A stretch of 64,000 bases of DNA from assembly GCF_041146795.1 (NCBI RefSeq), contig NC_135174.1, forward strand, positions 248,001 to 312,000, in the 5' to 3' direction. Below the pieces are notes generated by a model. That model had not been told where the DNA came from. It made no database searches and worked only from the letters and a program-made list of their open reading frames with translations. The stretch comes from Maylandia zebra (Eukaryota > Chordata > Actinopteri > Cichliformes > Cichlidae). A program made the translations under genes and the position numbers. Positions 1-42,501 of the stretch are shown piece by piece; the stretch's first letter is position 1; every line of letters starts with the position of its first letter.

Positions 1-316
1 AACGAGATCGCGGATACAAGCGGCAGAAATGAGCTTCCTCCGAAGGGTGGCTGGCCTCTCCCTTAGAGATAGGGTGAGAAGTTCGGCCATCCGGGAGGGG
101 CTCAGAGTAGAGCAGCTGCTGCTCCACATCGAAAGGAGCCAGCTGAGGTGGTTTGAGATTATATCTCTCGGCTGGCCTGGGAACGCCTTGGTATTCCCCC
201 GGATAAGCTGGAGGAGGTGGCTGGGGAGAGGGAGGTCTGGGCCTCTTTGCTTAGGCTGCTGCCCCCGCGACCCGGCCCCGGATAAAGCGGATGAAGATGG
301 ATGGATGGATGGATGG
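1..316 (+). mobile_element. 3' end of an RTE/Rex3-like LINE with GGAT tail
   Basis: Translation of the plus strand gives, with frame breaks, the C-terminal tail of a fish non-LTR retrotransposon polyprotein: AEMSFLRRVAGLSLRDRVR, LLLHIERSQLRW, then a [15 protein letters not shown]-like end. A short GGAT tandem tail follows at about 296-316. A very short 3' UTR ending in a GATG/GGAT microsatellite is known for Rex3/RTE elements, so that is the preferred family, but another LINE clade is possible. The element is 5'-truncated by the window edge. It abuts the 3' portion of the minus-strand L1 copy, so the L1 reading frame runs into this tail. Confidence 0.7.
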
Positions 317-2524
317 AAGATTATTTTTATTTTTCCAGTTCATGAGGACTGTTTTCTTGGCTATGCATAGGGCAGTGAAAACCACATGGGCGATATTCTT
401 TTCTGAAGTGACATTATCTAAGCTGCCCAACAAACACACTAAGGGGGAAGTTGGAATGTTACATTTCAGACATTTCGATAAGTCTTCACATATCTCGCGC
501 CAAAACTTCTGAACTGGTGGACAGAACCAAAGAGCGTGGCTATAATTGTCCGGTGAATAGGTTTGGCAGTGTGAGCAGTTGTTGGTAGACGTAAAGCCCA
601 TCTTGAACATCTGATGACCTGTATAGTGCACTCTATGTAGTATTTTGTATTGAATTAATTGAAGACTGGGATTTCGAATTAGATGAAAGGTTTTTAAGCA
701 AATCTGAGACCAGAAGTTTAGGTCTAAGTTAACTGATAAATCCGCTTCCCATTTTGCAATAGGAAGTGATGTTGATTCATCTGTTTTAGAAAGCATTCTG
801 TATATTTTGGATAGTAATTTGGGGGGTTTAAGAGTAAGAAATTGAACCACACTTGGTGGTGTTTGTAGTTCAACTTGACCCGGTTTAAATTTCTTTTTTA
901 CTATGGATTTAATTTGTTGATATTCTAAAAATCTTTTCTTGTTGATCCCATATTGTGTAACTAGTCCGTCAAATGAAATAAATTCTGTTCCTTCTAGTAT
1001 ATGTTCTAAATATTTGATTCCTTTACCACTCCAATCTGAAAAGTTTATCATATTATTGTTTTGTAATATGTCAGGGTTGTTCCAGATAGGTGTACGTTTG
1101 CATGGGATTAATGAAGACGCCGTCAATTTTAGAAACTCCCACCATGCTGTCAGAGAAGAGCTGATGTTGATGCTTTTAAAGCATTCATATCGTTGGATGT
1201 TTGAGCTGATAAATGGTAGGTCTGAGATCTCTAGATAATTGCAGAGTGCTTGTTCTACATCTAGCCAAGGTTCATCTAAGAGGGTATGTTTTAGCCATCC
1301 TGAGATAAACTGAAGCCTGTTGGCTAAGAAGTAGTGCTGAAAGTTAGGCAGTTCTAGTCCTCCTTTATCCTTGGTTTTTTGTAGTGTTTTTAAGCTTATA
1401 CGTGGGGGTTTATTTTTCCAAAGGAATTTGGACATACATGAATCTAGAGATCTGAACCAATCTTGTGGCGGTTTAGTTGGGATCATTGAGAATAAATAAT
1501 TTATTTTTGGTAAGACCATCATTTTTATAGCGGCAACCCTTCCCATGAGTGATATGGGTAGACATTTCCATCTAGCCAGATCATCTTCTACCTTCTTTAA
1601 AAGTGGGATATGGTTTAATTTAGTTAGATCTGCAAGCTTGGGAGAAACATTAATACCTAAATATTTTATATTTCCCGATTGCAGTGGTGTAGAAGAGGAA
1701 TTATGGAGGGAGCAATTAATCGGTAGGACTGTAGATTTTGACCAGTTAATTGAGTAATCTGATATTCTTGCAAAAGAGTTTATCAATTCAATCACCCCAG
1801 AGATATTGGTTTGTGAATTTTGGAGAAAGAGTAACACATCATCCGCATAAAGGCTGATTTTATGTTCCACGTTCTTGCATTTTATGCCCTTAATTACTGA
1901 ATTCTGTCTAATTGCTGCTGCTAGTGGTTCAATAAAAATTGCAAACAGTGAAGGGGAGAGTGGGCATCCCTGCCTGGTGCCCCTCAAGAGACAGAAGTTG
2001 GAGGATGTCTGGTCATTTGTTCTGACACAAGCTGTTGGGGAATTATATAATATTTTTAACCAGTTTATGAAAGAGGATCCAAAACCAAATTTGTGTAAAG
2101 TTGCAAATAGAAATTTCCAGTTAACTCTGTCAAATGCTTTTTCTGCATCTAAAGAAAATATTGTAGTTTCTAGGTTTTTACTGTATGAGTAGTCTATCAA
2201 ATTAAGTAACCTACGTGTATTTGTTGATGAGTGCCTACCTTTTATGAAACCAGTTTGGTCAGGATGAATTAAGAGGGGGGTTATTTTCTCCAGTCTCTTT
2301 GAGAGAGCTTTGCAGATTATTTTAAGGTCTACATTTATAAGGGATATTGGACGATAGCTTGAGGGATATACAGGGTCTTTGCCTGGTTTTAGCAGGAGAT
2401 TAATGTTTGCAGAATTCATATTTGATGGAAGTCTGCCCTTTTCTTTAATTTCCAACAACGTTCTGTAGAAAACTGGTGCTAGAATCGTCCGGAATTCTTT
2501 GTAGAATTCTGCAGGAAAGCCGTC
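251..2524 (-). CDS. L1/Tx1-like ORF2, C-terminal part (reverse transcriptase)
   Basis: This is the continuation of the LINE ORF2 beyond the 13.4-kb insert. RT motifs in order: [51 protein letters not shown] and the catalytic YADD near 1836-1849 (about residue 698 of the joined frame). A C-terminal cysteine motif NCSHC...HALWFC follows. The frame is open throughout. It reads through the GGAT microsatellite into the neighbouring LINE, so the last ~22 residues are foreign and the native C terminus is missing. Excluding the insert, 1421 + 2272 nt gives exactly 1231 codons including the stop, close to the usual size of this family. An ATG further up, inside the insert, opens a longer spurious frame to 2719. 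Confidence 0.9.
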
Positions 2525-2549
2525 CGAGAGAGATACTCCCATACAGCTT
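2525..2549 (+). repeat. Left terminal inverted repeat of the 13.4-kb insertion
   Basis: These 25 bases are identical to the reverse complement of 15948-15972. After CAGCTT the two ends diverge, to ATGACAAAATT on the left and GTTTCACACAC on the right. The L1 sequence immediately outside is continuous with that outside the other end. Confidence 0.9.
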
Positions 2550-2589
2550 ATGACAAAATTTAATCCGAAGTGATTGATGGCCCTAATCA

Positions 2590-2810
2590 TGACCTTTTGA
2601 CCTCCCCCCTCCCCCCCGGAAGTGTGTAATGAGCGTGACGAATTGCATCCGGAGAAGGGGGGGCGGGAAACCCCCGACATCCGGAGAAGGGGGGGGGGTG
2701 AACCCCGGAAGCGCGCCATCTGTCTCTAAGCGTGTCGAATTGCATCCTGAGAAGGAGGGGGGGGGGGAAACCTCCGGAAGCGCGCCATCTGTTGTTGGGA
2801 AAAAAATGTT
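2590..2810 (+). promoter_or_regulatory. GC-rich tandem repeat, promoter-like
   Basis: About two to three imperfect units of roughly 65-80 bp share GAATTGCATCC-GAGAAGG, a G-tract, and CCGGAAGCGCGCCATCTGT. They hold ETS-like CCGGAAG cores and CpGs in otherwise AT-rich DNA. A TATA-like AATAAAAAG lies at about 2840, roughly 55 bp upstream of an ATG at 2895. This resembles a polymerase II promoter, but no transcript evidence is available. It has no counterpart in the right arm of the insertion. Confidence 0.45.
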
Positions 2811-2894
2811 TTTAGAGGGAGGGACTGCAGCAGGGGAGGAGAATAAAAAGCAGAGAGGAGGTGTCACAATTTCTAAGGCACAGACACACACAAG

Positions 2895-2996
2895 ATGGAT
2901 CCTTTCATTCTGCAGCCCAGCAGCGCTCCTGTTTACTTGGACGGCGAAGAAATCTGCTCTCCCTCCGAACCCTCGAGCATGGGGGGCAGCAGCTGA
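2895..2996 (+). CDS. Unrecognised 33-residue ORF in the left end of the insertion
   Basis: An ATG in good context (CACAAGATGG) opens 33 codons beginning MDPFILQPSSAPVYLDGEEI, then Ser/Pro/Glu-rich residues, ending at TGA. It lies between the promoter-like repeat and an AATAAA at about 3067, so the segment has the layout of a small transcription unit. I do not recognise the protein. It could be exon 1 of a captured host gene or of a lost element gene, or chance. No clear splice donor follows it. Confidence 0.3.
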   Translation: MDPFILQPSSAPVYLDGEEICSPSEPSSMGGSS

Positions 2997-3079
2997 TTCT
3001 GTGGTGTATAGAGAGACAGAGCGGATGTAATTTTAGTTTCTTAAGCTGCACCGGCGTTTGTAATGGAAATAAAGAGTGA

Positions 3080-3334
3080 CTTCCTGTAGAGATTTCAATA
3101 GTATTTTATTTTCCTATAATACAGACGCTGTAAAAAACCTTTAAGATACACCATAGCTTGTGATGAAAAGAAGAACTTTCTATCCGCTTGTAACCTACAG
3201 GCTGCCTACCCTATATGTGTAAAAAATGAATAAATATCCCTTAGTGAATACTACTTTTCCTTTTGAGAGTCCTTTTTACAAGAGACTGAAAAACAAACCA
3301 TAATTGCCGTGACAGGCGATCTTGTTTCACACAC

Positions 3335-3366
<32 letters not shown>

Positions 3367-3690
3367 CGCGGGTCAAAGAGGAGTGAGATGACTTCCTGTA
3401 GAGAACCGTTTCTTTCAATAGTAATTTTATTTTCCTATAATACAGACGCAGTAAAAAACCTTTAAGATACACCATAGCTTATGATGAAAAGAAGAACTTT
3501 CTATCCACTTGTAACCTACAGGCTGCCTACCCCGTATGTGTAAAAAATTGAATAAATATCCCTTAGTGAATACTACTTTTCCTTTTGAGAGTCCTTTTTA
3601 CAAGAGACTGAAAAAACAAACCATAATTGCCGTGACAGGCGATCTTGTTTCACGCACACACACACACACACCGCGGGTCAAGGAGGAATG
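3080..3690 (+). repeat. Tandem ~300-bp duplication ending in CA microsatellites
   Basis: Two copies (about 3080-3375 and 3389-3680) run from GACTTCCTGTAGAGA through TACACCATAGCTT and GTGACAGGCGATCTTGTTTCAC to a CA repeat and CCGCGGGTCAA. They differ by several substitutions and by microsatellite length. The right arm contains only the second copy in full plus the extreme end of the first, so the first copy is where the palindrome becomes asymmetric. Confidence 0.85.
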
Positions 3691-4099
3691 AGACAGCGGA
3701 AGAGTTTTTTTCTTCATTACTTTTACAATGGGTTTTCTCAATAGACAGAAAATGATGACGCTGAGGAGTCAACAGCCGATATTATCATTGCTTGTAACCC
3801 GGTAAATAATTTCGTACATCTCCCAATAAAATAAGTCTTAGTGGAAAAAAGCTCATATTCGAATAAGTTTATTAAAGCACCCCCCTCTGTGGGAAAGAGT
3901 TTTTTTTCTCAGAGTCAAGTTTAAACCATGAGGAGAGTTTTGTCAACAGGAGACGGGTTTTGTCCATTTGGTAAAACAAATATCCGCCTCAAAGTCGTAT
4001 TTTACCGTTGCAGAATGTGGAAAACAGACGGCGTTCGCAAGAAGGCAATCAAAAAAAAAAAAAAAAAAAAAAGGAAATTGGATACCTCCAACTCTCCCG

Positions 4100-4137
<38 letters not shown>

Positions 4138-4344
4138 TGCATAGATAAACTCTGAATATAGTAGTGGGACTTCAGCTGTTTATGTAACTTACTATCTTAA
4201 GACTTTTGTGTCTACAATAATTAGTTTCCTTGGAACCAGATCCCTACCTGTTAATAATTCTCCACTGTACCCATGGTTCAGAAAATTACAGTCAGCCTGC
4301 CAGGGACACGTCACTCAGAGATAGCTGTCAATGTGGGATTTTTT

Positions 4345-4930
4345 TCTCCCCTTTTGTTCAGTTAAAGCTGCCTTTCATTCTTCAACACAGCTTAAACTCT
4401 AATAGGTAAGCTTTCTTGTAATTTCTTAGTTCTGCAGGCTTCTTGAAAGACATCCGAGACTCTTCTTTGGATGCTGGCTGCCTTTTGTTTTGTTTTCTGT
4501 CAAGATGATCCCACACCGCTTCGATTATCTTGAGGTTCGAACCCTGGAGAGATCAATCCATGACTGATGCGTTGTTTCATCCAGGCATACTTTGACTACA
4601 TTGGCAGTATGTTTGCGATCATTGTCGTACTGAAAAATGAAGTTGAAGCCAATCAGACACTACGTGGTAATACATGGTCGATCAAAATCTGGTGGAACTT
4701 TTCTACATTCATAATTTGATTAATTTGGATAAGAGCTCCAACAACACTGGCTGAAATCCAGCCTCAAAGCACGGTAGAGTATCCACGCTGTGTTAAAGAC
4801 GGCTATAGACATTCACTGTTGTATCTCTCTTCGGACCTCTTCCGTGCATATTTCAAATTTGGATTCATTACTCCATAAGACATATTACAGCTGATTTCTT
4901 TTTCCAGTCAATTTCTTGTGTAATTTGGCA
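4345..4930 (-). pseudogene. Decayed Tc1-like transposase fragment (left arm)
   Basis: Minus-strand translation gives, with stops and frame breaks, LWSNESKFEIFARKR then VWDHLDRKQNKRQPASKEES. These are the second half of a Tc1-like transposase, where ESKFEIF surrounds a catalytic Asp/Glu region and WDHLDR lies near the C terminus. It cannot be functional and is older than the palindrome, since both arms share its defects. Confidence 0.75.
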
Positions 4931-7249
4931 CACCTCAGCCTTATTTTTCTCTGTTCTCCTTCCTTAAGAATGGCTTATTAACAGCCACCCTTCCAACTCA
5001 GATAACTTTTGATGAGGTTTCATGAAATGTTTACAGCACTTGAGTTACTCGCCACGGCCATCCTAAATGCTAAAAACACTAAACTTTAATTCTAAATTAC
5101 GTAATTAACGTTAACCAGAAAAAACAAGCCAAAGTCGAAATGTTGCTGAGCTGACCTGTGGTATGCTATGTCTTCTAAAGCACGTATAATGTAAACAGAA
5201 CTGGTCTTTGCACAGAAGCCTGTGGAGCTTCATAATTAACCTCAGTGTGTGAAGAGGACTCTCCATTTAATAATAGCTGTAATAAAATGTTATGGCCGAC
5301 GGTGTTAAACGCTGCACTTGGGTCTAGCAGGGAAGATTTCAACTTTTCAATATGAATGAAGGCTGAAAACTGATTAGATTAATGTCTGATGATCTTTTCC
5401 GTGCTTCTTCAAGTTTGTAACACCAAACATATTAAAGGATGATGTAAGGCTCACAGGAAGAGTTTAATTAGACACACATTTACTATTTTCTTTATACTCT
5501 TTCTTTCTTGACATGTTTAATATGATTACTATCAGAGGAGAAAATGAACCTTGTGTAGTCTAAAAACTTTTTTATTTAATCAAACTGTAATGTTGTTGAA
5601 CTCTGACGGACGTGTCTTTTAATCTTGTCAACAAATCCTTAATCATCTAAATCTGCCATTTATCATCTTGTAAAATGTTCCCTCTGCTTCTGTTGCACAT
5701 CTCCCCCCGACACTCTCTGCTTCACCTGTCCTGTGCAGCTGGTCCAACCCCTGCCTGCCTCCTTAAACTGGGGTGTTTAAATCTCTTTACCTCTGTTGTG
5801 AACTTCACACAAAGTTTGTGGTAACAAAATCAAACTGACGAGGATCTCGTTTGAAAAACACACACACACACACACACACTCACGAGACAAAATAAAAACA
5901 GACTGCTCAAAGCAAAAGCAGAGCCCTCACAGTTGGTAGTACAAACACAGTGACAACATGCGTATTAGATACCCTCAGTGCCAAAAGCATAAATATGAAA
6001 AAAATGTGATCACCAAGAATATCCTAAAAATGGCATTGAGGTGCGTGTTACAGTAAAGAAAAAAAAAAAGTAGCCAAATTTTCATCGGAAAATGTTGAAT
6101 TTTAGTAAAAACAATGCTCTGTAGTTTGATACTGTCGTTACAGACAAAGCAGATGTTTAAAGCCTTTGGACGCACATTTGAAATGCACTCATTCTCCTTA
6201 TCAGCTGGAAACATTAAAGCCGTAAAATGACTTTTTCAAACGGATAAAAACTATTGACCAGCAGCAATGTTGAGCCTGTTCCAAAATTTGAATGTACATG
6301 TGTTGAAGGTGCGGGTCTTGTTGAATTATTAAACATACTTTCTTTAATTTTTCGAGCCACAAAAACAACAACTTTTAATTTTCTTCTGCTTGAGTCTCGG
6401 CCTCGGGTAGCTCTACTTATCATTGCTCAGTCAGTTGTCTGTTTGTGCTACTTTTTTTCAAGGAGCAGTGGATTATTGGTAAGGGTGACTTTATGTGTTT
6501 AGTTACTTAAGTGGAAGTACTGTGGAAAGTTTTACCTTACATACATAGATCTACCAGTACAGCTTCTGAGGTATCTGTTTACAAAATGTTATAATCTATT
6601 CAAAGGTTCTTTGCAATTTTACATTGATAAACATTATCCTTAACACATTTGGCCCACATAAAGTACTATGGCCATCACACGGTCATTTAGAATTGTTTAA
6701 ATAACTCGTGTCTTAAGTCCTTCCATCAAACAGAAAATTAAAAAAAAAAAAAAAAAAAAAACATGGTTCACTTTTACATCACAAAATGTTAGAAATATAA
6801 GCCGTTCATAACAACCTGAAAGGTTGGGAGTTTAAAATGCAAACCGATGGAAGCAGAAGTAGAAGACTATAATGTCTCAGAGCACACGGTGTCTATTAAT
6901 GTGTAGACATTTATAAATAGGAGCTTAATAAAGACGCTTAATTTCTTAAGAAATAAACAGGTGGAGTGATCTTTATCAAAAGTGGATGTTGCATCTGTGG
7001 CTAAACCACTGCACCCAAAAAAACTTTAAAAATCTACTGTGTGTGAGGCTGTGTAAGTAAAGCTTGCCCTTCACACCTGCGTGTAATAAACCATTTGTTG
7101 GGGGTTGTGGATTTGGCACCTCAGCATTGTGAAAGTGGGGAAACATGTTTCTGGCTGTGCATAAGATTCCTCCTTACAACTTAGAATCTCAGTTCTAAAT
7201 GAAATTCAGATGTTTTTTTAAGTATGGCTAATGTATTATTTGACTTCTA

Positions 7250-7251
7250 AG

Positions 7252-7296
<45 letters not shown>
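7250..7296 (+). repeat. CA microsatellite
   Basis: About 22 CA dinucleotides in the left arm. The partner GT run at about 11979-12028 in the right arm differs in length, showing slippage since the arms arose. Confidence 0.9.
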
Positions 7297-7297
<1 letters not shown>

Positions 7298-9030
7298 GAA
7301 CAACACAGAGAAGAAGAAGAGGGGGTCGTTTTACTACGCATCATAAAAACGCAATCATTCATCTTCCAACTGTATCTTTCTGTTCTGTCTTTAGAATCAT
7401 AGGTTGTTTACTGAGCCGTACTTTGGGAGTCATACTATTGTGATACTGGGGAGAAAAGGGTAAGGTTTGATAGACTAAACCCTTACACACATAACTTGAA
7501 AAACCTAAAGAGTGTGTGAGACTGCTAGCTGTGTTGTTCAGCATTAAACTCATCTACAAATGTGTTAGTAAAGAGCGACTTGTACTTCTGTCCCATTAAG
7601 CAACGGTTTAACAAATTTCACTGCAAACTATAAAAGGAATCTGGATTTATATAGAACATAGTAGTGATGGATTAAGTGCAGGAAACACTAGTATAAGGTG
7701 TCTATTGAACAAATCTCCTTCAGCGTTCAAAATGACCAAAGTGAGGCCTACAGGCGTTTCTCTCGGTTGGTTGTGTTCAGGGAAAAAGCAGCTAAATACA
7801 CTGAGACTGCTCCACATTGTTAGCGAGTTAACTCTGGATATCTGTAGGTTTTGTCAAACTTGGAGTGAACAAAAGCAGAAAAACAGTAAAAGATGCAGAC
7901 AGTGAAAGTCTGGTTTATTTCATGAACACAATGAAACATTTTACAGTCCACAGAGCAAAGTAGCATACATGATAAATAGATACACATAACATGAGAAGTA
8001 AAACTCGTCGTCTTACCACATGTTATATTCTGTAAACTTAAAATAACCACAGAAATTAGAGTTTAGTGTTTTAAGTCATCTATTAAAAAACATGAGTCAA
8101 CATTACTGAAGTGACACTTTAACGATGCGTCTTATCACCGTGTTTATGATGATAAAACATGTTCTCTCGTTAGTAGTTGTCAGCGCTGTCACTTGTCATG
8201 AAAATGTCCAGAGCCAGGGTTCCTCTTCAATTACCATTGATCATTAATAGGGTCACAAAAGATTTGTCACATTATCCCCATAAACAAAATGCTTTTATAG
8301 AAATCATCGTGATACAAATATTTAGATTCTTGATTCACAATGTGCACGAACTCAAAATCTTTAGAGGTTCATATTTATAAAGTATCGCAAATAATACATT
8401 TATACCATTGTATGAGCTACACTTCTTGTAAAAAACTGATTGAAAAAAGCTCCTGTCGTGACCTTCCTTCTGTGAGGACACACACACACACACACAGAGA
8501 GAGAGGGGGAGATCATTAGGATTGGAGGCGTTTTTGGATTTTCACTTATTGTTGGCTTTACAGTCACATAAAATTCATTCCAATTTTTTTTGCCTTTGCT
8601 TCAATTAAGGTGTTTCTTTAAATCTACAGCAGCTTCCTTTTCAAAAAGTTTACTGACATAGTAAGGAAGTAGCTAGGGAACTCAGTAAGTATGAGCAACA
8701 ACAGCTTAGGGACTGTTTCTACAATAAAGAGGAATTCATCATCATCCGCAGTTCATCAAAAAAAAAAAAAGTGCCATTAAAAACAATTCAACAGATCCTC
8801 AAAGTATGGATACAATCTGTTTTCAGCTGTAGAGGTACGCTTCACGTACTTATCAACATGCAGTTTAGAGGCTTGCATTAGAGTGCTTTGGTACTTGGGC
8901 CTCTTTTATTTAGCACGGTTATACCATTGTGTATTTAGCTATATAAATATGCTCAAGAGTCTATTGTATGTTTGTCATGCAATTAAAAATTCAAAAATAT
9001 AATTTTTAAATCAGTAACTTTGCAAATTTA

Positions 9031-10242
9031 GAGGAAATGTTTTTGGATAACAAATGTGTCACATTTTCAACAGGGTTTGAATAATCAGCGTTAACACAGA
9101 GACATTTATGCGCTGGGTATAACAGAAATCCTTACCTTGGAGCAGAGAAACACGGTGTATTGTTGCTTTTCTCTATTGTATAAGCAGTGCCCGACTGTCA
9201 GAAACGCTCTGTGCGGGTAGCAAAGTCGGATCCAACGCACATCCAGGAATCTGTGTGAAAGAAAGGTCTCGCTGCAGCTAGGCTCTCAGGATAGTCAGGC
9301 TTTTATTTATATTTGCATTCTGGTGCGTTAAAGCAGCCTCTGTGTCCCGCTTGGATCCTCATTCCGAAAATTCAGATATTTAAATAAAATGGTGAATTGG
9401 CTAGTGATGAGGAGCCACTTAGATCCGTAAAATGAGGTTTGATTAAATTAAACTCTTATGAACAGCTATGAACTCTACCTCTCTGCTGATGTGTTCCAAA
9501 CAAGCAATGTTTTCTACACGTCCAAACTGTGTGCTAACTACCTCACACCGCTGTGTCTGGGATCCGAAAAAATAAAAAGTTAAAACGCTATACCTTGGGG
9601 GGGAATTGTGAAGTGCTGAGGAAACTACTGTGTGTCTGATGGGGTGTTTTTATATAGGTGGACTTGGTTTCAGTTGGCCTCTGACATGATAAGATAAAAT
9701 AAAGGAAACTGATTGTAATGGAACTACAGTGCTGGGATGCTCTTGTTAAGGCAGCCTCTTTTATTGTTTTATGACTTGTTTTGCTGACTGTTGAGGGCCT
9801 AACTGTAACCAACTCTGTCTAACTGTTGCAGAGTTAAGAATCTGTAGTTTTTAGAAGTAACACAAGAAAAGTTTATTTCTAAAGGAATACCTGTTGTTTG
9901 TGGTGCTCTATTTAAAACTATTAGTGTCATGAACCGAAGTTCAGCGCACAAGCTGGACCCAGAAGCAGAGCCAACACACACAGGAGTACGAGAAAATAAA
10001 CTTTATTTTAACTGAAGGTGTCCCGGGAGGGTAGAAGGAAAACACGCGTGAAACTCGAGAAACCAAGGGACCGGGAGATGAGTCGCGCAGGAACGCCGAA
10101 AACAGGACTGTGGGAGGCTGCAACAGAAAAAGGACAAGAATTATTGGGGCGCGGGGAAATAGCAGCATACGTGGGGGAAGAGTATGAGTCTTACGGTGAC
10201 AGCGGGGCCGTGGGAGCCGGAGGGAGGGGTGAGGGTCCGCGC
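9031..10242. other. Central spacer of the palindrome
   Basis: This 1.2-kb unpaired segment separates the arms. The left three quarters are AT-rich with no coding signal. From about 9930 the sequence turns GC-rich: GTCATGAACCGAAGTTCAG, CTGGACCCAGAAGCAGAG and AAATAAACTTTATTTTA resemble the terminal region of a fish transposable element of unidentified class, reading toward the minus strand. It ends exactly at the inner edge of the right arm. Confidence 0.55.
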
Positions 10243-11975
10243 TAAATTTGCAAAGTTACTGATTTAAAAATTATATTTTTGAATTTTTAATTGCATGACA
10301 AACATACAATAGACTCTTGAGCATATTTATATAGCTAAATACACAATGGTATAACCGTGCTAAATAAAAGAGGCCCAAGTACCAAAGCACTCTAATGCAA
10401 GCCTCTAAACTGCATGTTGATAAGTACGTGAAGCGTACCTCTACAGCTGAAAACAGATTGTATCCATACTTTGAGGATCTGCTGAATTGTTTTTAATGGC
10501 ACTTTTTTTTTTTTTGATGAACTGCGGATGATGATGAATTCCTCTTTATTGTAGAAACAGTCCCTAAGCTGTTGTTGCTCATACTTACTGAGTTCCCTAG
10601 CTACTTCCTTACTATGTCAGTAAACTTTTTGAAAAGGAAGCTGCTGTAGATTTAAAGAAACACCTTAATTGAAGCAAAGGCAAAAAAAATTGGAATGAAT
10701 TTTATGTGACTGTAAAGCCAACAATAAGTGAAAATCCAAAAACGCCTCCAATCCTAATGATCTCCCCCTCTCTCTCTGTGTGTGTGTGTGTGTGTCCTCA
10801 CAGAAGGAAGGTCACGACAGGAGCTTTTTTCAATCAGTTTTTTACAAGAAGTGTAGCTCATACAATGGTATAAATGTATTATTTGCGATACTTTATAAAT
10901 ATGAACCTCTAAAGATTTTGAGTTCGTGCACATTGTGAATCAAGAATCTAAATATTTGTATCACGATGATTTCTATAAAAGCATTTTGTTTATGGGGATA
11001 ATGTGACAAATCTTTTGTGACCCTATTAATGATCAATGGTAATTGAAGAGGAACCCTGGCTCTGGACATTTTCATGACAAGTGACAGCGCTGACAACTAC
11101 TAACGAGAGAACATGTTTTATCATCATAAACACGGTGATAAGACGCATCGTTAAAGTGTCACTTCAGTAATGTTGACTCATGTTTTTTAATAGATGACTT
11201 AAAACACTAAACTCTAATTTCTGTGGTTATTTTAAGTTTACAGAATATAACATGTGGTAAGACGACGAGTTTTACTTCTCATGTTATGTGTATCTATTTA
11301 TCATGTATGCTACTTTGCTCTGTGGACTGTAAAATGTTTCATTGTGTTCATGAAATAAACCAGACTTTCACTGTCTGCATCTTTTACTGTTTTTCTGCTT
11401 TTGTTCACTCCAAGTTTGACAAAACCTACAGATATCCAGAGTTAACTCGCTAACAATGTGGAGCAGTCTCAGTGTATTTAGCTGCTTTTTCCCTGAACAC
11501 AACCAACCGAGAGAAACGCCTGTAGGCCTCACTTTGGTCATTTTGAACGCTGAAGGAGATTTGTTCAATAGACACCTTATACTAGTGTTTCCTGCACTTA
11601 ATCCATCACTACTATGTTCTATATAAATCCAGATTCCTTTTATAGTTTGCAGTGAAATTTGTTAAACCGTTGCTTAATGGGACAGAAGTACAAGTCGCTC
11701 TTTACTAACACATTTGTAGATGAGTTTAATGCTGAACAACACAGCTAGCAGTCTCACACACTCTTTAGGTTTTTCAAGTTATGTGTGTAAGGGTTTAGTC
11801 TATCAAACCTTACCCTTTTCTCCCCAGTATCACAATAGTATGACTCCCAAAGTACGGCTCAGTAAACAACCTATGATTCTAAAGACAGAACAGAAAGATA
11901 CAGTTGGAAGATGAATGATTGCGTTTTTATGATGCGTAGTAAAACGACCCCCTCTTCTTCTTCTCTGTGTTGTTC

Positions 11976-12029
<54 letters not shown>

Positions 12030-15000
12030 CTTAGAAGTCAAATAATACATTAGCCATACTTAAAAAAACATCTGAATTTCATTTAGAACTGAGATTCTAA
12101 GTTGTAAGGAGGAATCTTATGCACAGCCAGAAACATGTTTCCCCACTTTCACAATGCTGAGGTGCCAAATCCACAACCCCCAACAAATGGTTTATTACAC
12201 GCAGGTGTGAAGGGCAAGCTTTACTTACACAGCCTCACACACAGTAGATTTTTAAAGTTTTTTTGGGTGCAGTGGTTTAGCCACAGATGCAACATCCACT
12301 TTTGATAAAGATCACTCCACCTGTTTATTTCTTAAGAAATTAAGCGTCTTTATTAAGCTCCTATTTATAAATGTCTACACATTAATAGACACCGTGTGCT
12401 CTGAGACATTATAGTCTTCTACTTCTGCTTCCATCGGTTTGCATTTTAAACTCCCAACCTTTCAGGTTGTTATGAACGGCTTATATTTCTAACATTTTGT
12501 GATGTAAAAGTGAACCATGTTTTTTTTTTTTTTTTTTTTTTAATTTTCTGTTTGATGGAAGGACTTAAGACACGAGTTATTTAAACAATTCTAAATGACC
12601 GTGTGATGGCCATAGTACTTTATGTGGGCCAAATGTGTTAAGGATAATGTTTATCAATGTAAAATTGCAAAGAACCTTTGAATAGATTATAACATTTTGT
12701 AAACAGATACCTCAGAAGCTGTACTGGTAGATCTATGTATGTAAGGTAAAACTTTCCACAGTACTTCCACTTAAGTAACTAAACACATAAAGTCACCCTT
12801 ACCAATAATCCACTGCTCCTTGAAAAAAAGTAGCACAAACAGACAACTGACTGAGCAATGATAAGTAGAGCTACCCGAGGCCGAGACTCAAGCAGAAGAA
12901 AATTAAAAGTTGTTGTTTTTGTGGCTCGAAAAATTAAAGAAAGTATGTTTAATAATTCAACAAGACCCGCACCTTCAACACATGTACATTCAAATTTTGG
13001 AACAGGCTCAACATTGCTGCTGGTCAATAGTTTTTATCCGTTTGAAAAAGTCATTTTACGGCTTTAATGTTTCCAGTCATTTTACGGCTTTAATGTTTCC
13101 AGCTGATAAGGAGAATGAGTGCATTTCAAATGTGCGTCCAAAGGCTTTAAACATCTGCTTTGTCTGTAACGACAGTATCAAACTACAGAGCATTGTTTTT
13201 ACTAAAATTCAACATTTTCCGATGAAAATTTGGCTACTTTTTTTTTTTCTTTACTGTAACACGCACCTCAATGCCATTTTTAGGATATTCTTGGTGATCA
13301 CATTTTTTTCATATTTATGCTTTTGGCACTGAGGGTATCTAATACGCATGTTGTCACTGTGTTTGTACTACCAACTGTGAGGGCTCTGCTTTTGCTTTGA
13401 GCAGTCTGTTTTTATTTTGTCTCGTGTGTGTGTGTGTTTTTCAAACGAGATCCTCGTCAGTTTGATTTTGTTACCACAAACTTTGTGTGAAGTTCACAAC
13501 AGAGGTAAAGAGATTTAAACACCCCAGTTTAAGGAGGCAGGCAGGGGTTGAACCAGCTGCACAGGGCTGGTGAAGCAGAGAGTGTCGGGGGGAGATGTGC
13601 AACAGAAGCAGAGGGAACATTTTACAAGATGATAAATGGCAGATTTAGATGATTAAGGATTTGTTGACAAGATTAAAAGACACGTCCGTCAGAGTTCAAC
13701 AACATTACAGTTTGATTAAATAAAAAAGTTTTTAGACTACACAAGGTTCATTTTCTCCTCTGATAGTAATCATATTAAACATGTCGAGAAAGAAAGAGTA
13801 TAAAGAAAATAGTAAACGTGTGTCTAATTAAACTCTTCCTGTGAGCCTTACATCATCCTTTAATATGTTTGGTGTTACAAACTTGAAGAAGCACGGAAAA
13901 GATCATCAGACATTAATCTAATCAGTTTTCAGCCTTCATTCATATTGAAAAGTTGAAATCTTCCCTGCTAGACCCAAGTGCAGCGTTTAACACCGTCGGC
14001 CATAACATTTTATTACAGCTATTATTAAATGGAGAGTCCTCTTCACACACTGAGGTTAATTATGAAGCTCCACAGGCTTCTGTGCAAAGACCAGTTCTGT
14101 TTACATTATACGTGCTTTAGAAGACATAGCATACCACAGGTCAGCTCAGCAACATTTCGACTTTGGCTTGTTTTTTCTGGTTAACGTTAATTACGTAATT
14201 TAGAATTAAAGTTTAGTGTTTTTAGCATTTAGGATGGCCGTGGCGAGTAACTCAAGTGCTGTAAACATTTCATGAAACCTCATCAAAAGTTATCTGAGTT
14301 GGAAGGGTGGCTGTTAATAAGCCATTCTTAAGGAAGGAGAACAGAGAAAAATAAGGCTGAGGTGTGCCAAATTACACAAGAAATTGACTGGAAAAAGAAA
14401 TCAGCTGTAATATGTCTTATGGAGTAATGAATCCAAATTTGAAATATGCACGGAAGAGGTCCGAAGAGAGATACAACAGTGAGTGTCTATAGCCGTCTTT
14501 AACACAGCGTGGATACTCTACCGTGCTTTGAGGCTGGATTTCAGCCAGTGTTGTTGGAGCTCTTATCCAAATTAATCAAATTATGAATGTAGAAAAGTTC
14601 CACCAGATTTTGATCGACCATGTATTACCACGTAGTGTCTGATTGGCTTCAACTTCATTTTTCAGTACGACAATGATCGCAAACATACTGCCAATGTAGT
14701 CAAAGTATGCCTGGATGAAACAACGCATCAGTCATGGATTGATCTCTCCAGGGTTCGAACCTCAAGATAATCGAAGCGGTGTGGGATCATCTTGACAGAA
14801 AACAAAACAAAAGGCAGCCAGCATCCAAAGAAGAGTCTCGGATGTCTTTCAAGAAGCCTGCAGAACTAAGAAATTACAAGAAAGCTTACCTATTAGAGTT
14901 TAAGCTGTGTTGAAGAATGAAAGGCAGCTTTAACTGAACAAAAGGGGAGAAAAAAATCCCACATTGACAGCTATCTCTGAGTGACGTGTCCCTGGCAGGC

Positions 15001-15157
15001 TGACTGTAATTTTCTGAACCATGGGTACAGTGGAGAATTATTAACAGGTAGGGATCTGGTTCCAAGGAAACTAATTATTGTAGACACAAAAGTCTTAAGA
15101 TAGTAAGTTACATAAACAGCTGAAGTCCCACTACTATATTCAGAGTTTATCTATGCA

Positions 15158-15199
<42 letters not shown>

Positions 15200-15950
15200 C
15201 GGGAGAGTTGGAGGTATCCAATTTCCTTTTTTTTTTTTTTTTTTTTTTGATTGCCTTCTTGCGAACGCCGTCTGTTTTCCACATTCTGCAACGGTAAAAT
15301 ACGACTTTGAGGCGGATATTTGTTTTACCAAATGGACAAAACCCGTCTCCTGTTGACAAAACTCTCCTCATGGTTTAAACTTGACTCTGAGAAAAAAAAC
15401 TCTTTCCCACAGAGGGGGGTGCTTTAATAAACTTATTCGAATATGAGCTTTTTTCCACTAAGACTTATTTTATTGGGAGATGTACGAAATTATTTACCGG
15501 GTTACAAGCAATGATAATATCGGCTGTTGACTCCTCAGCGTCATCATTTTCTGTCTATTGAGAAAACCCATTGTAAAAGTAATGAAGAAAAAAACTCTTC
15601 CGCTGTCTCATTCCTCCTTGACCCGCGGTGTGTGTGTGTGTGTGCGTGAAACAAGATCGCCTGTCACGGCAATTATGGTTTGTTTTTTCAGTCTCTTGTA
15701 AAAAGGACTCTCAAAAGGAAAAGTAGTATTCACTAAGGGATATTTATTCAATTTTTTACACATACGGGGTAGGCAGCCTGTAGGTTACAAGTGGATAGAA
15801 AGTTCTTCTTTTCATCATAAGCTATGGTGTATCTTAAAGGTTTTTTACTGCGTCTGTATTATAGGAAAATAAAATTACTATTGAAAGAAACGGTTCTCTA
15901 CAGGAAGTCATCTCACTCCTCTTTGACCCGCGGTGTGTGTGTGAAACAAG
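10243..15950 (-). repeat. Right arm of the giant inverted repeat (5708 bp)
   Basis: Reverse complement of 3321-9030. It carries a private 24-bp tandem duplication (CATTTTACGGCTTTAATG repeated near 13058-13105), altered GT-run lengths and a few substitutions. Relative to the left end it lacks about 770 bp between CAGCTT of the terminal repeat and CTTGTTTCAC, with CTT shared at both sides. That is the footprint of a microhomology deletion. Confidence 0.9.
14370..14955 (+). pseudogene. Decayed Tc1-like transposase fragment (right arm)
   Basis: Inverted copy of the fragment at 4345-4930. LWSNESKFEIF lies near 14418 and WDHLDRKQNKRQPASKEES near 14780-14840 on the plus strand, with the same stop codons. 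It is a remnant carried by the palindrome, not the source of its mobility: its TA-type family does not match the TC target duplication. Confidence 0.75.
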
Positions 15951-15972
15951 CTGTATGGGAGTATCTCTCTCG
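15948..15972 (-). repeat. Right terminal inverted repeat of the 13.4-kb insertion
   Basis: Exact inverted copy of 2525-2549. It is followed by the duplicated TC at 15973-15974 and then the L1 ORF2 codons for KAPGPD on the minus strand. Confidence 0.9.
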
Positions 15973-17393
15973 TCTGGACCTGGAGCCTTATTATTGGGCA
16001 TACTTATCAGGGCTTCCTGGAGTTCACCTGGTGTCAGTGGTGAATCCAGTGCCATTGCTTGAGTGTCCAATAATTTTGGAAGAGTTATGTTGTCCAAAAA
16101 CGGATCAATTTCTTTTTTAGATGGGTTTATTTGTGGTGAATACAACGTTTTATAGAAATCCCTGAAAATGTTGTTTATTTGTATCGGATCATATATTGTG
16201 TTCCCAGATGAATCTTGAACAGCACATATAGTTGTTTTTTCTCTATTTATTTTTAGCTGGTTTGCTAGAAATTGACCGGATTTATTACCATGTTCATAAT
16301 TTTGTAAGCGTAGTCTTTGTACTAAGAATTTTGTTTTTTTATTAATTATCTCATTTAATTCTAGTTTAGTTTTGCGTATTTTGTTCAGTGTTTCCTGATC
16401 TTGGTGGGACGCGTAGGCTTCTTCTAGTGATTTGATGTTTTTTTCTAATTCCTGAATTTTTTTGTTTTCTTTTTTTTTTTTTTGTGATGAGAAAGAAATT
16501 ATTTTACCTCTCATCACAGCTTTCCCTGCTTCCCATAGAACAGAAGCAGATATTCCGGGAGTGTCATTATAGTCTAAATATGAAGTCCACTCTTTTTTAA
16601 AATATTTAATAAAGTCTTCATCTTTAAGTAGCGATATATTAAATCTCCAGTTTTTACTTGGCGTAGTATTATTCTTGTGCATTAGTGTTAAAGATACAGG
16701 ACCATGATCGCTGACAGCTATAGGGTGAATCTCAGTGTCTGAAATGTCGTTCAGCAGTGAGCTGCTGACCAAAAAATAATCCAGATGAGAGTAGGAGTGA
16801 TGGACATGTGAGAAAAAAGTATATTCCTTACTGGTGGGGTGAAGGGAGCGCCATGCATCGCAAAGACCAAAGTCGCTCATATACTGTTTGATTATATTTG
16901 TGGACTGCCAATTACGCTGAGTTCCCGCTGTATTGAGCCTATCCATGTCTTCATTTAGTCCAAGGTTGAGGTCGCCTCCAAGAACAAGTGTGCCATCTAA
17001 GTGTTCAGAGAGTGCACTGAAAAAACCGTGAAAGAATGAGGGATCATCAACATTTGGAACATATACACTTGCAATACATAGCTTTTTATCACGTATAGAT
17101 AGTTTAATGATTAAGAATCTGCCCTCTGGATCTATAACTGTATCGAGTACTGTGAAATTAATATTTTTATGTATTAAAATTGCTACTCCCCTTTGTCTAG
17201 AATTATAACAAGCTGAGAACACATTAGGAAACTCAGGTGTTTTAAGTTCATTCGAACCTCTAAGAGTTCTGTGGGTCTCTTGTAAAAGGACAACATCTGC
17301 CTGTAGTTTTTTGAGTTGGTTAAATATTTTTAACCTCTTTTCTCTGGAGCCAGCTCCATTTATATTCCATGTAATGAACCTCAGTGTACCCAT
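15973..17393 (-). CDS. L1/Tx1-like ORF2, N-terminal part (AP endonuclease)
   Basis: This is the first ~473 codons of a LINE ORF2, starting at the ATG complementary to 17391-17393. It opens with MGTLRFITWNINGAG, typical of apurinic/apyrimidinic endonucleases that nick target DNA. Further motifs are LLQETH (about residue 38), GGDLNLGL (about 141), a SHLDYFLVS segment (about 205) and the catalytic SDHGPVSL (about 226). A Lys/Glu-rich coiled linker follows. The reading frame is open to the insertion point, where it enters the inserted DNA and ends after about 46 foreign codons (stop near 15834). The catalytic residues seen look intact, so this copy was probably young when it was interrupted. The rest of the protein lies at 2524-251. 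Confidence 0.9.
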
Positions 17394-17967
17394 AGATGTT
17401 TGTGTATAACTAGGGATGTATGCTGTGCGCGTCGCTTAGACAGGTGGAGAGAATACGTCACTTGTTCATAAATAAAGAGAAGGAGAGAGAGAAAAAATGT
17501 GTGGCGAGATGCTCCCTGAGTCTGACTTTGTGTATGCATAGTTACTAATATGAGTAGGCTTGGCTTAAGTGTGTGTATCCTAAACGACTGTGTGCGCTGT
17601 CTGACTGAAGTAAATGTGCTGCCGTTGAGCGCATGGTGCGTATGTGTTGAAATAAAGGATGTTGCTTGTGGATGAGTGTCGAAGCAGGTGATCGAGGCAG
17701 TGAAAGGAATAAAGAAAGAAACCAAGGACAGGGGTGAGCAGCATAAAACCAAGAGGGGGAAAAGAGAGGAAAAAAAAACGAGAAGAAAAAAACAAAAACA
17801 AAACGTAAACATTCCAATTAAATCACTGACGGAGAGTGACGGTGTTAATTCTGCTATGAAATCACACTTTAAGATGCGATTTGATACTGGTAAGTTAAAC
17901 AGATGTTAATGCAAGTTAGTGTGAGTGGATAGGGAAAGGGTGTAGCTGATTCTTATCTGGTGTGAGG

Positions 17968-22099: not shown

Positions 22100-25000
22100 C
22101 TACGCTGCATCACACAGGATCTGCTCCAGCACCGTCAGCAGGCGCTTCAGGCCGTAGATGTAGCCGTGATCCTGGCTCTCACTCGGGAAAACATGAGCAA
22201 AGTCGATCATCCTGACCTCCACGTCTCCTGCGCCGCTCTCCGTTTCGTCGCCTCCTCGGTCCTCCGCCTCCTCCCCGCTCCTCCTGCCGTCCTCTCTGTC
22301 CACATCCTTCTCTTGCAGTTGGGATTTGTTTCCGTTCCCATTAGGTGGTCGTTGCAGCTCACGCGACTGTTTCCATGCAGAGTTGTCCTCCTCACCCGGT
22401 GCTGAGACGCCGTCTCCAGACACGGCGCTCACAGCACCACCGTCTCCCCTGTGACCGTCCTCACCTTTCCTGCGATTGGAATAAACAGCGTCCAGGCTGT
22501 AGTCCCAGTGCTCTGCCACCTGGATGTTGTTGTTGTTGTACTCGGCCACTTCCTCTCCTTGCCCCAGCTTTCCCTGTCGGGCTTTCCGCTCTGTGCCGCC
22601 TTCACCTGATGACAAAGACGTGGGTGTTTTTAACATCACAGTGGGGCTGATGGATGGACTGCTGAGGAGGGACGACAGGGAGGATGAAGAGACAGAGGAG
22701 GGCAGGCCCTCGTAGACAAACAGAAGGGAGCTGGCATAGAAAGTCAGCTGGTGCTGGGACTCGAACCAGCGAAGGATCCGCTGCACTCTGCGGATGCTCG
22801 CCGCCACGGCGTCCTTCCTCAGGCTAACTCCATTATGGAAGAATTTAGACAAGCCTGGTGGACAGGAGAAGACGTTCAAAAACAATAACACCAATAATAA
22901 TAACAATAACACACAATAACTCAAGCGCAGCCTGTGTCTCCACTATGTGTGCCACTGTAACACATTACTGTAATCACGCTGCACACTGATATGTACACCA
23001 TGCTAACACAGGCCCGATCAGAAGTTTCACATCAGCTGAAAAATGGTACAAAATCCTATTTTGCATGTTTGAATCTTAACAAGGTTCCAGGAAGAAATGA
23101 GAGAGACACAAACGAGGTTTAACAATATCAGGCTGGAGCCCCTTTGTTCCTTCAGACCTGCCTTTGACTGGCACAGACTCACACAGCGTCCACATCCCAG
23201 CACTGAGATCGGGTGAATGTGGAGGAGCATTCAATGTCATGTTCAACAAACTACAGCATGATATGGGCTTCAGGACATGCTGCGTGGAGGAGTAAAGGCC
23301 CTGTTTAAATTTCATCAAACATACAGTCTCACACACATACATACCATCTTTAAGAGTGTCCTTAACCAATCCTCTTCCATAATGCTGATCATAGGAGTCG
23401 AAAGTGTCCGTGCACACCTTGTACACCTGAGAATACAAGAAAATCTCACATTAAAACAAACGTCTGCATTAGTTTTGGTTTGAAACACAGTGTCACTGTT
23501 CTCAGAGTCACTTATTCAGCAGCTGGCAGCAAACCAGAATGTTCCTGGACTTCCTGCTGAGACGGCACAACAACATCTGTGAGCTGTGACGAGGCCTGAT
23601 CGGTCAGGACTTTGTGATGGATTTCAAACTGATTGAAGACAGTGGGCCAATGAGAGAACGGGACCTGAAGGCTGCCTCCACCTAGTGGCCCAGAACTACA
23701 CAAATGTGTGTGCGTGCGTGTAACTCTGCAGCAGTGGTTCGAGCTCAGACGCTTCTGTTAATGTGCTGAATGCCGAGTTACATACCGACACAGCTTCAGA
23801 GCCGCGACTCAAACACTGAGCAGCTCTTTCAGACTGACATTTCTGTCCACAAACCCATGCAATGCATGCTGGGAGCCTTTTACGTCTGCAATCCCATGAT
23901 CATGAACTATAAGGGGATTCACTACAATCTAAAAATCAAGACAGCCATGACAAAGATTCCACAAATTAAAAACAACCCTCAAAATGCATTTAGAGCCAAG
24001 CTAACTGAATCAACTGTCAGAGATTTATTTTAGCATAATAAGACATGCTGTCTTCTGTTTCCGTCATCAGGAAGAGAGTGATCAGCAAACAGCAGCATCC
24101 TCTCTACGTAAACAACTGAAGTAGACAGGAACGCCCTCAGATCAGTGCGCTAACCTCTGATGGTAGCAGATCGTGATGATGCAGACCCACACCGCTCCTG
24201 TCAGTAGCATACAGCGCCACTGTAATGCTGATGAATGTTTACAGCATTTAGAATCAGTCTATAGAGAGCACTCTAACTTTAGCATTACTAAGGTATTAGA
24301 AAAAGCTTAATTTATCATTTATACAGCATTACTCCTCCATAGTATGGCTTTCATAAACACTCATATGATTATGACTGTGACGATTACCAGCAGTGATAAC
24401 TGTACACAAGGGGTGCAACGATACTCGTATGGATATTGAACCGTTCGATACAGAGCTTTCGGTTCGGTACACATATGTATCGAACAATACAAAAGTTTTA
24501 ATTTATTTTATCAGCTTTCCTTCTGACGATGCTGTCTGTGTGGAGCGCTCAGTGGATCTGCGCTCGACAGTGCAGCCTAGGCGGAGTAGTCGAACGCAGA
24601 TTCACTGAGCGCAGGGCAAGCTAGCAGACAGAAGCTAAGCTCCTTGCAACATGGCAAATTGAACCTCCCCCACCCTCATTCAGATCTGACGTTTGGAATT
24701 ATTTTGGTTTTCATGTGACGTATGACCCTGAAGGTAAGCGCGTCATGGACTAAAGTAAAACAGTATGTTGGATGTGCCACGCAATGCTCAATTACATGGG
24801 TGGGAACTAGTATGTTAGCGCAGTTAGCTCGTTAGCGTGTTGGCCGTCCAGGCCCACGCATGGGGCGATCCGTGGTAGCTCGTTAACGGAGATTTGCCGT
24901 GTTATGGCGTTAACGTCATTTCAGATTAAGGCTGACAGCACTAGTGGGAACACAACGAATATGACTGCACATTTACTCCGACAGCATCCTAGTGCAAAGA

Positions 25001-42076: not shown

Positions 42077-42501
42077 AAATGTGTATATTTTTGGTTAATC
42101 TGCATCAAATATAAAAACCTACTTTACAGTTTTGAATGAGTAATGATACAATAAGGATATAATAGAGACTTAGAGTCACAGCGGGTATTTTTTCTGCAGT
42201 GAGTAAAACTGTAATACATTTACAATACTATTATTATTATGTTTAATACTTGTATTTAAAGTAACACTTTGAATGCAGGACTTGTATTAGATGATTGTTT
42301 CAGCGCTGTCAGTATAGGCTAGAGTATTCGCACGTCTTCTAGTTTGTGTCTGTAGTTTGCGATGGTTTTATACAACTTAAGTACATTTGTGGCTTTGGAG
42401 AATCGAAACAACATCGTCTTTTTGTGCTCAGAGTGTGAGAAAGTATGAGGCTTTTTCTTTCCTTGGCACACAACCTGTAAAAAGCCAGTAAGTCATGAAA
42501 T
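42077..42501. other. AT-rich gap before the L2-type LINE
   Basis: No gene was recognised. It may include part of the 5' UTR of the LINE that follows. Confidence 0.4.

What the first reader, a model, noticed from the sequence alone, without database searches (positions are those of the whole stretch)
2525..15972. 13.4-kb palindromic mobile DNA inserted in an L1 ORF2
The ends are identical 25-bp inverted repeats and the target is duplicated by 2 bp (TC). The interrupted L1 codons rejoin exactly. Almost everything inside is two 5.7-kb arms of near identity around 1.2 kb. Long-TIR foldback elements are known (Galileo/Foldback in Drosophila), but arms this long with a 2-bp TC duplication and no transposase do not match a family I know. 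It may be a non-autonomous giant element mobilised by an unknown transposase, or a transposon whose one end was replaced by an inverted copy of the other.
Basis: partly seen in the sequence, partly recalled or inferred. Interest (0 to 1): 0.88.

Follow-up and report, generated by a model that had tools for sequence, protein, structure and literature searches.

The report
Palindromic two-left-ended Polinton in fish
This 13.4-kb mirror-image stretch of what looks like fish DNA is a gene-less relative of virus-like jumping genes called Polintons; it carries two copies of the same end around what looks like captured host DNA, and relatives at other sites in the genome show that such elements were made and inserted more than once.

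Summary
The palindrome is real, but its ends were misread and its family is identifiable. The element is 2527-15970, with AGAGAG..CTCTCT termini and a 6-bp target-site duplication with one mismatch (CGTCCG/CGTCTG), not 2 bp. Genome search gave 15 further pairs of inverted ends; 13 of 15 have perfect 6-bp duplications, a hallmark of vertebrate Polintons/Mavericks. Two pairs enclose PolB; one of these also holds an rve integrase with chromodomain.

In those two coding pairs only the left end continues beyond about 470 bp. The same left-specific sequence lies at both ends in 12 of 15 pairs; one 3.7-kb pair shows only the right-type end at both ends. So the finding is a symmetric two-left-ended derivative: about 1.5 kb of Polinton end plus about 6 kb of host-like DNA, folded back. 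Three other copies share its exact centre, so it moved as a palindrome. Arms are more alike within than between seven sampled copies, but not in an eighth (C3). Best mechanism: fold-back during protein-primed replication, as in adenovirus symmetric recombinants, then integration in trans. Structure is shown; replication is inferred. New variant of a known kind.

The parts
2521..2526 (.). left copy of the 6-bp target-site duplication (CGTCCG)
   Evidence: terminus set by comparison with 15 other end pairs
2527..2993 (+). left terminal repeat shared by both ends of the two coding Polintons (AGAGAG terminus; query positions 3-469)
   Evidence: right ends of C2:1278725-1295440 and C4:18076346-18092821 match query 3-469 only
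2843..3001 (+). TATA-like AATAAAAAG and 33-codon ORF (ATG 2897), by eye; no homologue found
2986..4063 (+). left-end-specific Polinton sequence (query 462-842 and element 865-1539); contains a roughly 322-bp tandem duplication (units from 3103 and 3424)
   Evidence: 78-93% identity to left ends of the two coding elements; no match in the 2.3-kb piece near the right end of the C2 element
4318..9031 (+). left arm, captured host-like non-coding DNA; its junction with Polinton sequence lies between about 4064 and 4318 in poly-A/CA repeats
4440..5010 (-). decayed Tc1-type transposase relic in the arm (26-residue match to Sleeping Beauty, E = 8e-4)
5178..5331 (-). LINE relic (L2-like by eye) also present at C8:175522-175753
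   Evidence: the family name comes from no call
9032..10241 (.). 1210-bp spacer; same centre in three other copies (L103, L105, L112); in the C3 copy this stretch lies within the palindrome arms
10242..15943 (-). right arm, inverted copy of 3356-9031
15948..15950 (.). AAG (CTT on the other strand) at the junction of the deletion in the right end
15948..15970 (-). right terminus (23 bp, ending CTCTCT)
15971..15976 (.). right copy of the 6-bp target-site duplication (CGTCTG)
251..2520 (-). downstream part of the interrupted L1 ORF2 (reverse transcriptase)
   Evidence: RVT_1 E = 4.4e-41
15977..17435 (-). upstream part of the interrupted L1 ORF2 (endonuclease)
   Evidence: Exo_endo_phos E = 6.1e-20

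Best explanation
A non-autonomous, two-left-ended (symmetric) derivative of a Polinton/Maverick family. A Polinton left end of about 1.5 kb became joined to about 6 kb of host DNA. The joined molecule was then turned into an inverted dimer, so both ends carry the same terminal repeat and, presumably, the same replication origin. I propose that this happened by fold-back of a displaced single strand or of a broken end during protein-primed strand-displacement replication outside the chromosome, as in adenovirus symmetric recombinants. The resulting linear palindrome was integrated by the family's rve integrase acting in trans, giving 6-bp duplications, and has gone through this cycle several times. 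An initially near-perfect palindrome (like the C3 copy, gap about 63 nt) lost one copy of its centre, giving the 1210-bp spacer of this copy and three others. The right terminal region here later lost about 0.8 kb. Shown: palindrome, ends, 6-bp duplications, two-left-end geometry, insertion at several sites. Supported but not proven: arms kept alike. Inferred: extrachromosomal fold-back replication, integrase in trans, host origin of the arm DNA, the order of central and terminal deletions.
For: Family: 15 other inverted end pairs 3.7-23 kb apart (40 of 99 first-look candidates scored), 13 of 15 with perfect 6-bp duplications; (AG)3//(CT)3 ends with 6-bp duplications are a stated signature of vertebrate Mavericks (passages of PMC8097293). 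PolB lies inside 2 of the 15 pairs; rve plus chromodomain in the C4 piece examined for it. Two left ends: left-specific sequence (query from 462 or 496 to 842 or beyond) is matched at both ends in 12 of 15 pairs, at the left end only in the 2 coding pairs, at neither end in 1 pair; it continues to element 1539 beside both coding left ends and is absent from the 2.3-kb piece near the C2 right end. Mirror case: C11:766130-769792 has two right-type ends; the outer 119 bp of its central 1.4-kb piece are 100% inverted copies, and frames in it resemble, by eye, those near the right end of the C2 coding element; duplication ATCCCG is perfect. Shared centre: L103, L105 and L112 have exactly this element's arm/spacer junctions and different duplications. 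Arms: pooled over 7 copies and element positions 1800-3290, within-copy differences 8 of 5836 sites, between-copy 293 of 50997; 10 sites private to one copy and present in both its arms versus 5 that differ between arms. One copy (C7:60.67 Mb) lacks element 5133-5768 in both arms.
Against: No extrachromosomal form, terminal protein or replication intermediate was observed. Arm likeness could be chromosomal gene conversion. The eighth copy tested, C3, goes against it: its arms differ at 5 of 355 sites, no less than C3 differs from this element (3 of 353, 4 of 361), and its innermost 250 bp are only 84% alike; it was not in the seven-copy count. The finding itself supplies 6 of the 8 within-copy differences, and three of its seven differences sit within 18 bp. 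Only sampled pieces were compared and between-copy comparisons are not independent. Four of the 12 two-left-end pairs were not symmetric in the sampled 800-bp pieces (three on C14, one on C7); a fifth (C25) was only seen to have two left ends. For the C4 coding element and the C11 pair the missing left marker rests alone, which scored part of its candidates. Host origin of the arm DNA rests on relics and on one diverged, rearranged copy without Polinton ends (82-95%); the genome-wide arm search did not complete.
Confidence: 0.8

Rival explanations
1. The palindrome formed in the chromosome: breakage beside a one-ended Polinton fragment, sister-chromatid fusion or template switching, giving two inverted left ends that the integrase could then mobilise. 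Later arm identity is kept by gene conversion, or simply reflects young insertions.
For: The arms contain old chromosomal relics. The junction at 10241/10242 shows no obvious microhomology on inspection of the sequence. The C3 copy has diverged arms. Gene conversion is known to keep palindrome arms alike (recalled).
Against: Both a left-left and a right-right symmetric form appear in the same family, which a rare chromosomal accident predicts less well than a replication route. The C3 copy has an unpaired centre of only about 63 nt, as fold-back would leave.
Confidence: 0.26
2. Ordinary extension of terminal repeats, as described for Galileo: internal sequence of a chromosomal element is drawn into the repeat by gap repair, with no special replication.
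For: Galileo repeats recruit internal and foreign sequence (passages of PMC4168063).
Against: Here nearly the whole element becomes repeat, the Polinton genes and the other end are missing, and a right-right form exists too.
Confidence: 0.1
3. A cut-and-paste transposon of an unknown superfamily with a 2-bp TC duplication, as first read.
For: The two bases outside a 25-bp perfect repeat are TC on both sides.
Against: In 15 related end pairs the two bases before AGAGAG vary, and 13 of 15 have perfect 6-bp duplications that include them.
Confidence: 0.01
4. Assembly artefact: one arm is a mirrored copy made by the assembler.
For: Large palindromes are error-prone in assemblies (recalled).
Against: The arms differ by 7 substitutions and several repeat lengths; the same centre occurs at three other chromosomal sites with their own 6-bp duplications; both ends join the same L1 frame.
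Confidence: 0.02

Closest known systems
Polinton/Maverick elements of vertebrates (Barreat and Katzourakis 2021, PMC8097293; passages seen)
   Same: AGAGAG..CTCTCT end motif, 6-bp target-site duplication, size within their 12.7-24.6 kb range; coding relatives with the same ends hold PolB and, in the one C4 piece examined for it, an rve/chromo integrase
   Different: This element encodes none of these that Pfam recognises, has two left ends and is a palindrome over most of its length. The passages describe mining from regions holding both integrase and PolB, which would pass over gene-less forms
Adenovirus symmetric recombinants (SYREC of adenovirus 12: two viral left ends around a palindrome of human DNA; recalled, not among the 10 papers listed)
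   Same: Two identical left ends, cellular DNA in inverted arms, a relative with protein-primed replication
   Different: Those are known as free virion DNA from cultured cells (recalled); these are integrated and multi-copy. Analogy of mechanism, not membership
Galileo/Foldback long-repeat elements of Drosophila (PMC4168063; passages seen)
   Same: Very long inverted repeats that take in foreign sequence
   Different: P-superfamily transposase and shorter repeats (second-longest about 1.6 kb in the passages seen); here Polinton ends and a 6-bp duplication

Membership tests
Polinton/Maverick (as non-autonomous member) | end motif 5'-(AG)3 // (CT)3-3' | tested here: met
   motif stated in PMC8097293
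Polinton/Maverick (as non-autonomous member) | 6-bp target-site duplication | tested here: met
   5 of 6 bases here; perfect in 13 of 15 related pairs
Polinton/Maverick (as non-autonomous member) | long terminal inverted repeats | tested here: met
   in relatives; here the right one is reduced by an internal deletion
Polinton/Maverick (as non-autonomous member) | element itself encodes PolB and integrase | tested here: not met
   so it is not an autonomous Polinton
Polinton/Maverick (as non-autonomous member) | relatives with the same ends encode PolB of the protein-primed kind | tested here: met
   PF03175 (DNA_pol_B_2) inside 2 of 15 pairs; none in 14 control genomes. That this model covers protein-primed polymerases is recalled
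Polinton/Maverick (as non-autonomous member) | relatives with the same ends encode a retroviral-type integrase | tested here: met
   rve E = 3.7e-11 and Chromo E = 6.1e-9 in one 4.35-kb piece of the C4 element; not tested in others
Polinton/Maverick (as non-autonomous member) | relatives encode capsid, packaging ATPase and protease | tested here: inconclusive
   adenovirus-type protease only below cut-off (E = 0.048); no Pfam capsid or ATPase in the pieces scanned
Adenovirus-type symmetric recombinant | two copies of the same end around an inverted repeat | tested here: met
Adenovirus-type symmetric recombinant | produced by protein-primed replication of a free linear genome | not testable with these tools
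   needs extrachromosomal DNA
Galileo/Foldback (P superfamily) | P-type transposase in relatives | tested here: inconclusive
   relatives with the same ends hold PolB and, in one, an rve integrase; no search for a P-type transposase as such was run

The most novel reading that the evidence does not exclude
In this genome the Polintons have given rise to self-complementary satellite genomes: two-left-ended palindromes with captured host DNA that replicate as fold-back molecules on the enzymes of coding Polintons, are re-templated from one arm in each cycle (so arms of most copies are more alike within than between copies), and reintegrate as heritable defective genomes that outnumber the coding copies among the 15 pairs seen.
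Probability: 0.37. Interest if true: 0.88.

Novelty: new variant of a known kind. Interest (0 to 1): 0.76.

Why it matters
How Polintons replicate and whether they leave the chromosome as virus-like genomes is, to my knowledge, inferred from gene content rather than observed. Symmetric left-left and right-right forms are the by-product expected of protein-primed strand-displacement replication, so they turn that question into something that can be counted in genomes. They also suggest a route by which Polintons pick up and spread kilobases of host DNA, and a class of large palindromes that surveys starting from Polinton genes would pass over.

Tried and rejected
Rejected: a 2-bp TC duplication and a new superfamily; ISL2EU, whose stated duplication is AT (PMC4482050 passages); Harbinger, stated as 3 bp (PMC9179366 passages). 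My own intermediate idea that 10241/10242 is the original fold-back junction, drawn from the diverged copy at C8:125.8-130.2 kb in which arm and spacer are contiguous, was replaced by a central deletion after the C3 copy showed a longer palindrome.

Led nowhere: Rfam (0); the terminus and two interior patterns in viral contigs (0 each); a 16-mer in prokaryote contigs, 37 stretches, chance level by my own estimate, none read; the terminus letters in papers (0); a 41-codon stretch holding the 33-codon ORF against the protein collection (no candidate). Literature: on foldback, inverted-duplication and fish elements; others (62 papers, 20 listed; 14 listed) on nonautonomous or palindromic Polintons; (638 papers held 3 of 6 terms, 10 listed, none of the 10 with SYREC or symmetric recombinant). 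By title and start of abstract none listed describes palindromic Polintons; only these searches support any statement that this is not in print. Of PMC9587614 and PMC6431247 I saw passages.

Limits: only 40 of 99 first-look candidates were scored, so copy numbers are lower bounds; unpaired ends were not followed inward. Of the 15 pairs I sampled mirrored 800-bp pieces in 10 (6 symmetric, 4 not), centres in 14, and interior pieces of the C3 copy. The seven-copy arm comparison leaves out C3 (done apart) and the four pairs that were not symmetric. P13 (C25) has two left ends but its centre is a Gypsy-like insertion (by eye) and its arms were not examined. Three C14 pairs share flanks and are probably one insertion later duplicated, so 12 two-left-end pairs are at most 10 insertion events.
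Full report
What is there. The window lies at C8:248001-312000 of a 962-Mb genome in 63 contigs; its LINEs look like those of a fish, but no tool named the species. An L1 ORF2 on the minus strand (reverse transcriptase in 251-2524, endonuclease in 15973-17435) is split by a large insert. Removing the insert and one TC leaves one open frame of 1244 codons, so the L1, and hence the insertion, is young. The insert is palindromic: arms 3356-9031 and 10242-15943, spacer 9032-10241. The arms differ by 7 substitutions in about 5.66 kb and by lengths of CA repeats and a 26-bp repeat.

The ends. The exact 25-bp end is found nowhere else in the genome. A search with the whole left end (2525-3420) gave 109 matches, many of them in inverted pairs 3.7-23 kb apart (40 of 99 first-look candidates scored). 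Reading 70 bp at both ends of 15 pairs showed that the conserved sequence begins with AGAGAG (once AGAGCG) and that the two bases before it vary. With that boundary 13 of 15 pairs have perfect 6-bp duplications, and this element has CGTCCG/CGTCTG, one mismatch. Of the two that fail, one (C7:4.61 Mb) has 3 mismatches and one (C14:9.57 Mb) has the same flank on both sides. Vertebrate Mavericks are described as having (AGT)2//(ACT)2 or (AG)3//(CT)3 ends and 6-bp duplications, sizes 12.7-24.6 kb and repeats of 46-1447 bp (PMC8097293, passages).

The coding relatives. The PolB model PF03175 matched 83 places in the genome and none in 14 control genomes; matches lie inside the pairs C2:1278725-1295440 and C4:18076346-18092821, and near four unpaired ends. 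One 4.35-kb piece of the C4 element holds an rve integrase domain and a chromodomain, with a sub-threshold adenovirus protease match. Capsid and ATPase were not recognised by Pfam in the pieces scanned.

Two left ends. In both coding elements the right end matches query 3-469 only, while the left end continues through 842; beside both left ends the match goes on to element position about 1539 at 78-89%, and a 2.3-kb piece near the right end of the C2 element does not match at all. No such piece of the C4 right end was read. So query 462-1539 is a marker of the left end. Its first part is matched at both ends in 12 of 15 pairs (from 462 or 496). In the finding the left end has it whole, and the right end keeps the terminal 23 bp and the sequence from about element 800 inward, joined at CTT. 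One pair, C11:766130-769792, shows the marker at neither end; the outer 119 bp of its central 1.4-kb piece are 100% inverted copies, and reading frames in that piece resemble, by eye, those near the right end of the C2 coding element. I read it as the mirror case, a two-right-ended palindrome; its duplication ATCCCG is perfect.

The same palindrome elsewhere. Copies at C2:22.49, C2:13.44 and C11:9.13 Mb share exactly this element's centre (arm to element 6507, spacer 6508-7717) and have different 6-bp duplications. The C3:55.08 Mb copy has a longer palindrome in which the spacer belongs to the arms and the unpaired centre is about 63 nt. I read the 1210-bp spacer as the result of an asymmetric central deletion of such a palindrome. 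Copies at C7:60.67 and C14:34.34 Mb are palindromes with other centres, and the first lacks element 5133-5768 in both arms. The C12 copy is symmetric in the sampled piece (788 of 788); the three C14:9.4-9.8 Mb copies and C7:4.61 Mb are not symmetric in theirs, although both orientations of the arm sequence occur in the C7 copy.

What the arms are. From about element 1794 inward nothing matched in the three coding-element pieces compared or in the two coding-element centres; the 4.35-kb C4 piece was not compared with the arms. This part carries a decayed Tc1-type transposase (E = 8e-4 to Sleeping Beauty), a LINE relic and microsatellites, and no convincing Pfam domain. A diverged, rearranged copy of part of it lies 120 kb away at C8:125792-130226 (82-95%); no Polinton end with 6 or fewer mismatches in 25 lies in the 272 kb examined except those of the finding. 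The likeliest reading is captured host DNA; the search that would have found the source did not complete.

Arms within and between copies. Over element 1800-3290 in seven copies, arms of one copy differ at 8 of 5836 compared sites and different copies at 293 of 50997 (pairwise comparisons overlap, so no significance is claimed). In the four copies with this centre the figures are 6 of 3482 and 68 of 14346. Since those four share one fold, their palindrome is older than their separation, and arms evolving independently should differ at least as much as the copies do. Ten sites are private to one copy and present in both its arms; five differ between arms. The finding supplies 6 of the 8 within-copy differences. 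Against this, the C3 copy, which was not in that count, has arms that differ at 5 of 355 sites, while C3 and the finding differ at 3 of 353 or 4 of 361, and its innermost 250 bp are 84% alike. It may be an old insertion, or its arms were never homogenised. With the diverged C8 copy as outgroup, changes occurred in both arms of the finding: three clustered ones (5727, 5729, 5744) in the right, one (8791) in the left; the other three could not be placed.

Mechanism. Mavericks are expected to replicate by protein priming, like adenoviruses (PMC8097293 discussion passage). In that scheme a displaced strand or a broken end that folds back and is copied yields an inverted dimer with the same origin at both ends. 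Adenovirus 12 SYREC DNA, two viral left ends around palindromic human DNA, is the known example (recalled; not among the papers listed). The family here shows both expected products, left-left and right-right. Integration in trans by the rve integrase would account for the 6-bp duplications. Re-templating from one arm in each cycle would account for arm likeness, though chromosomal gene conversion is not excluded.

Verdict. Observation confirmed with corrected ends; interpretation half right; a new variant of a known kind. The surprise for a specialist lies in inherited, multi-copy symmetric recombinants of a eukaryotic virus-like element and in the direct test they offer of how Polintons replicate.

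Noticed in passing
C14:9382931-9391948, 9571080-9580706, 9764886-9774211 (outside the window): Three copies share flanks: one has flanks A and B, one has B on both sides, one has B and A. This looks like one insertion multiplied by inverted duplication, possibly driven by the palindrome itself.
   Followed up: partly
C11:766130-769792 (outside the window): A 3.7-kb pair with two right-type ends of the same Polinton family, a perfect 6-bp duplication, and long reading frames in its central piece.
   Followed up: partly
window 2843-3068: A compact TATA-like / 33-codon ORF / AATAAA unit at the terminal repeat, MDPFILQPSSAPVYLDGEEICSPSEPSSMGGSS; no homologue found.
   Followed up: partly
C25:3842746-3866126 (outside the window): A 23.4-kb pair with two left ends whose centre holds a Gypsy-like reverse transcriptase frame of 466 codons (by eye).
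   Followed up: no
window 42499-45526: A second LINE with RVT_1 and an ALKBH8_N match.
   Followed up: no
window 22103-22942: Possible host gene exon: inositol polyphosphate kinase domain, E = 1.1e-20, minus strand.
   Followed up: no
C8:128640-129236 (L049): A roughly 600-bp TG..CA insert flanked by AGAT in the diverged arm copy, looking like a solo LTR (by eye).
   Followed up: no
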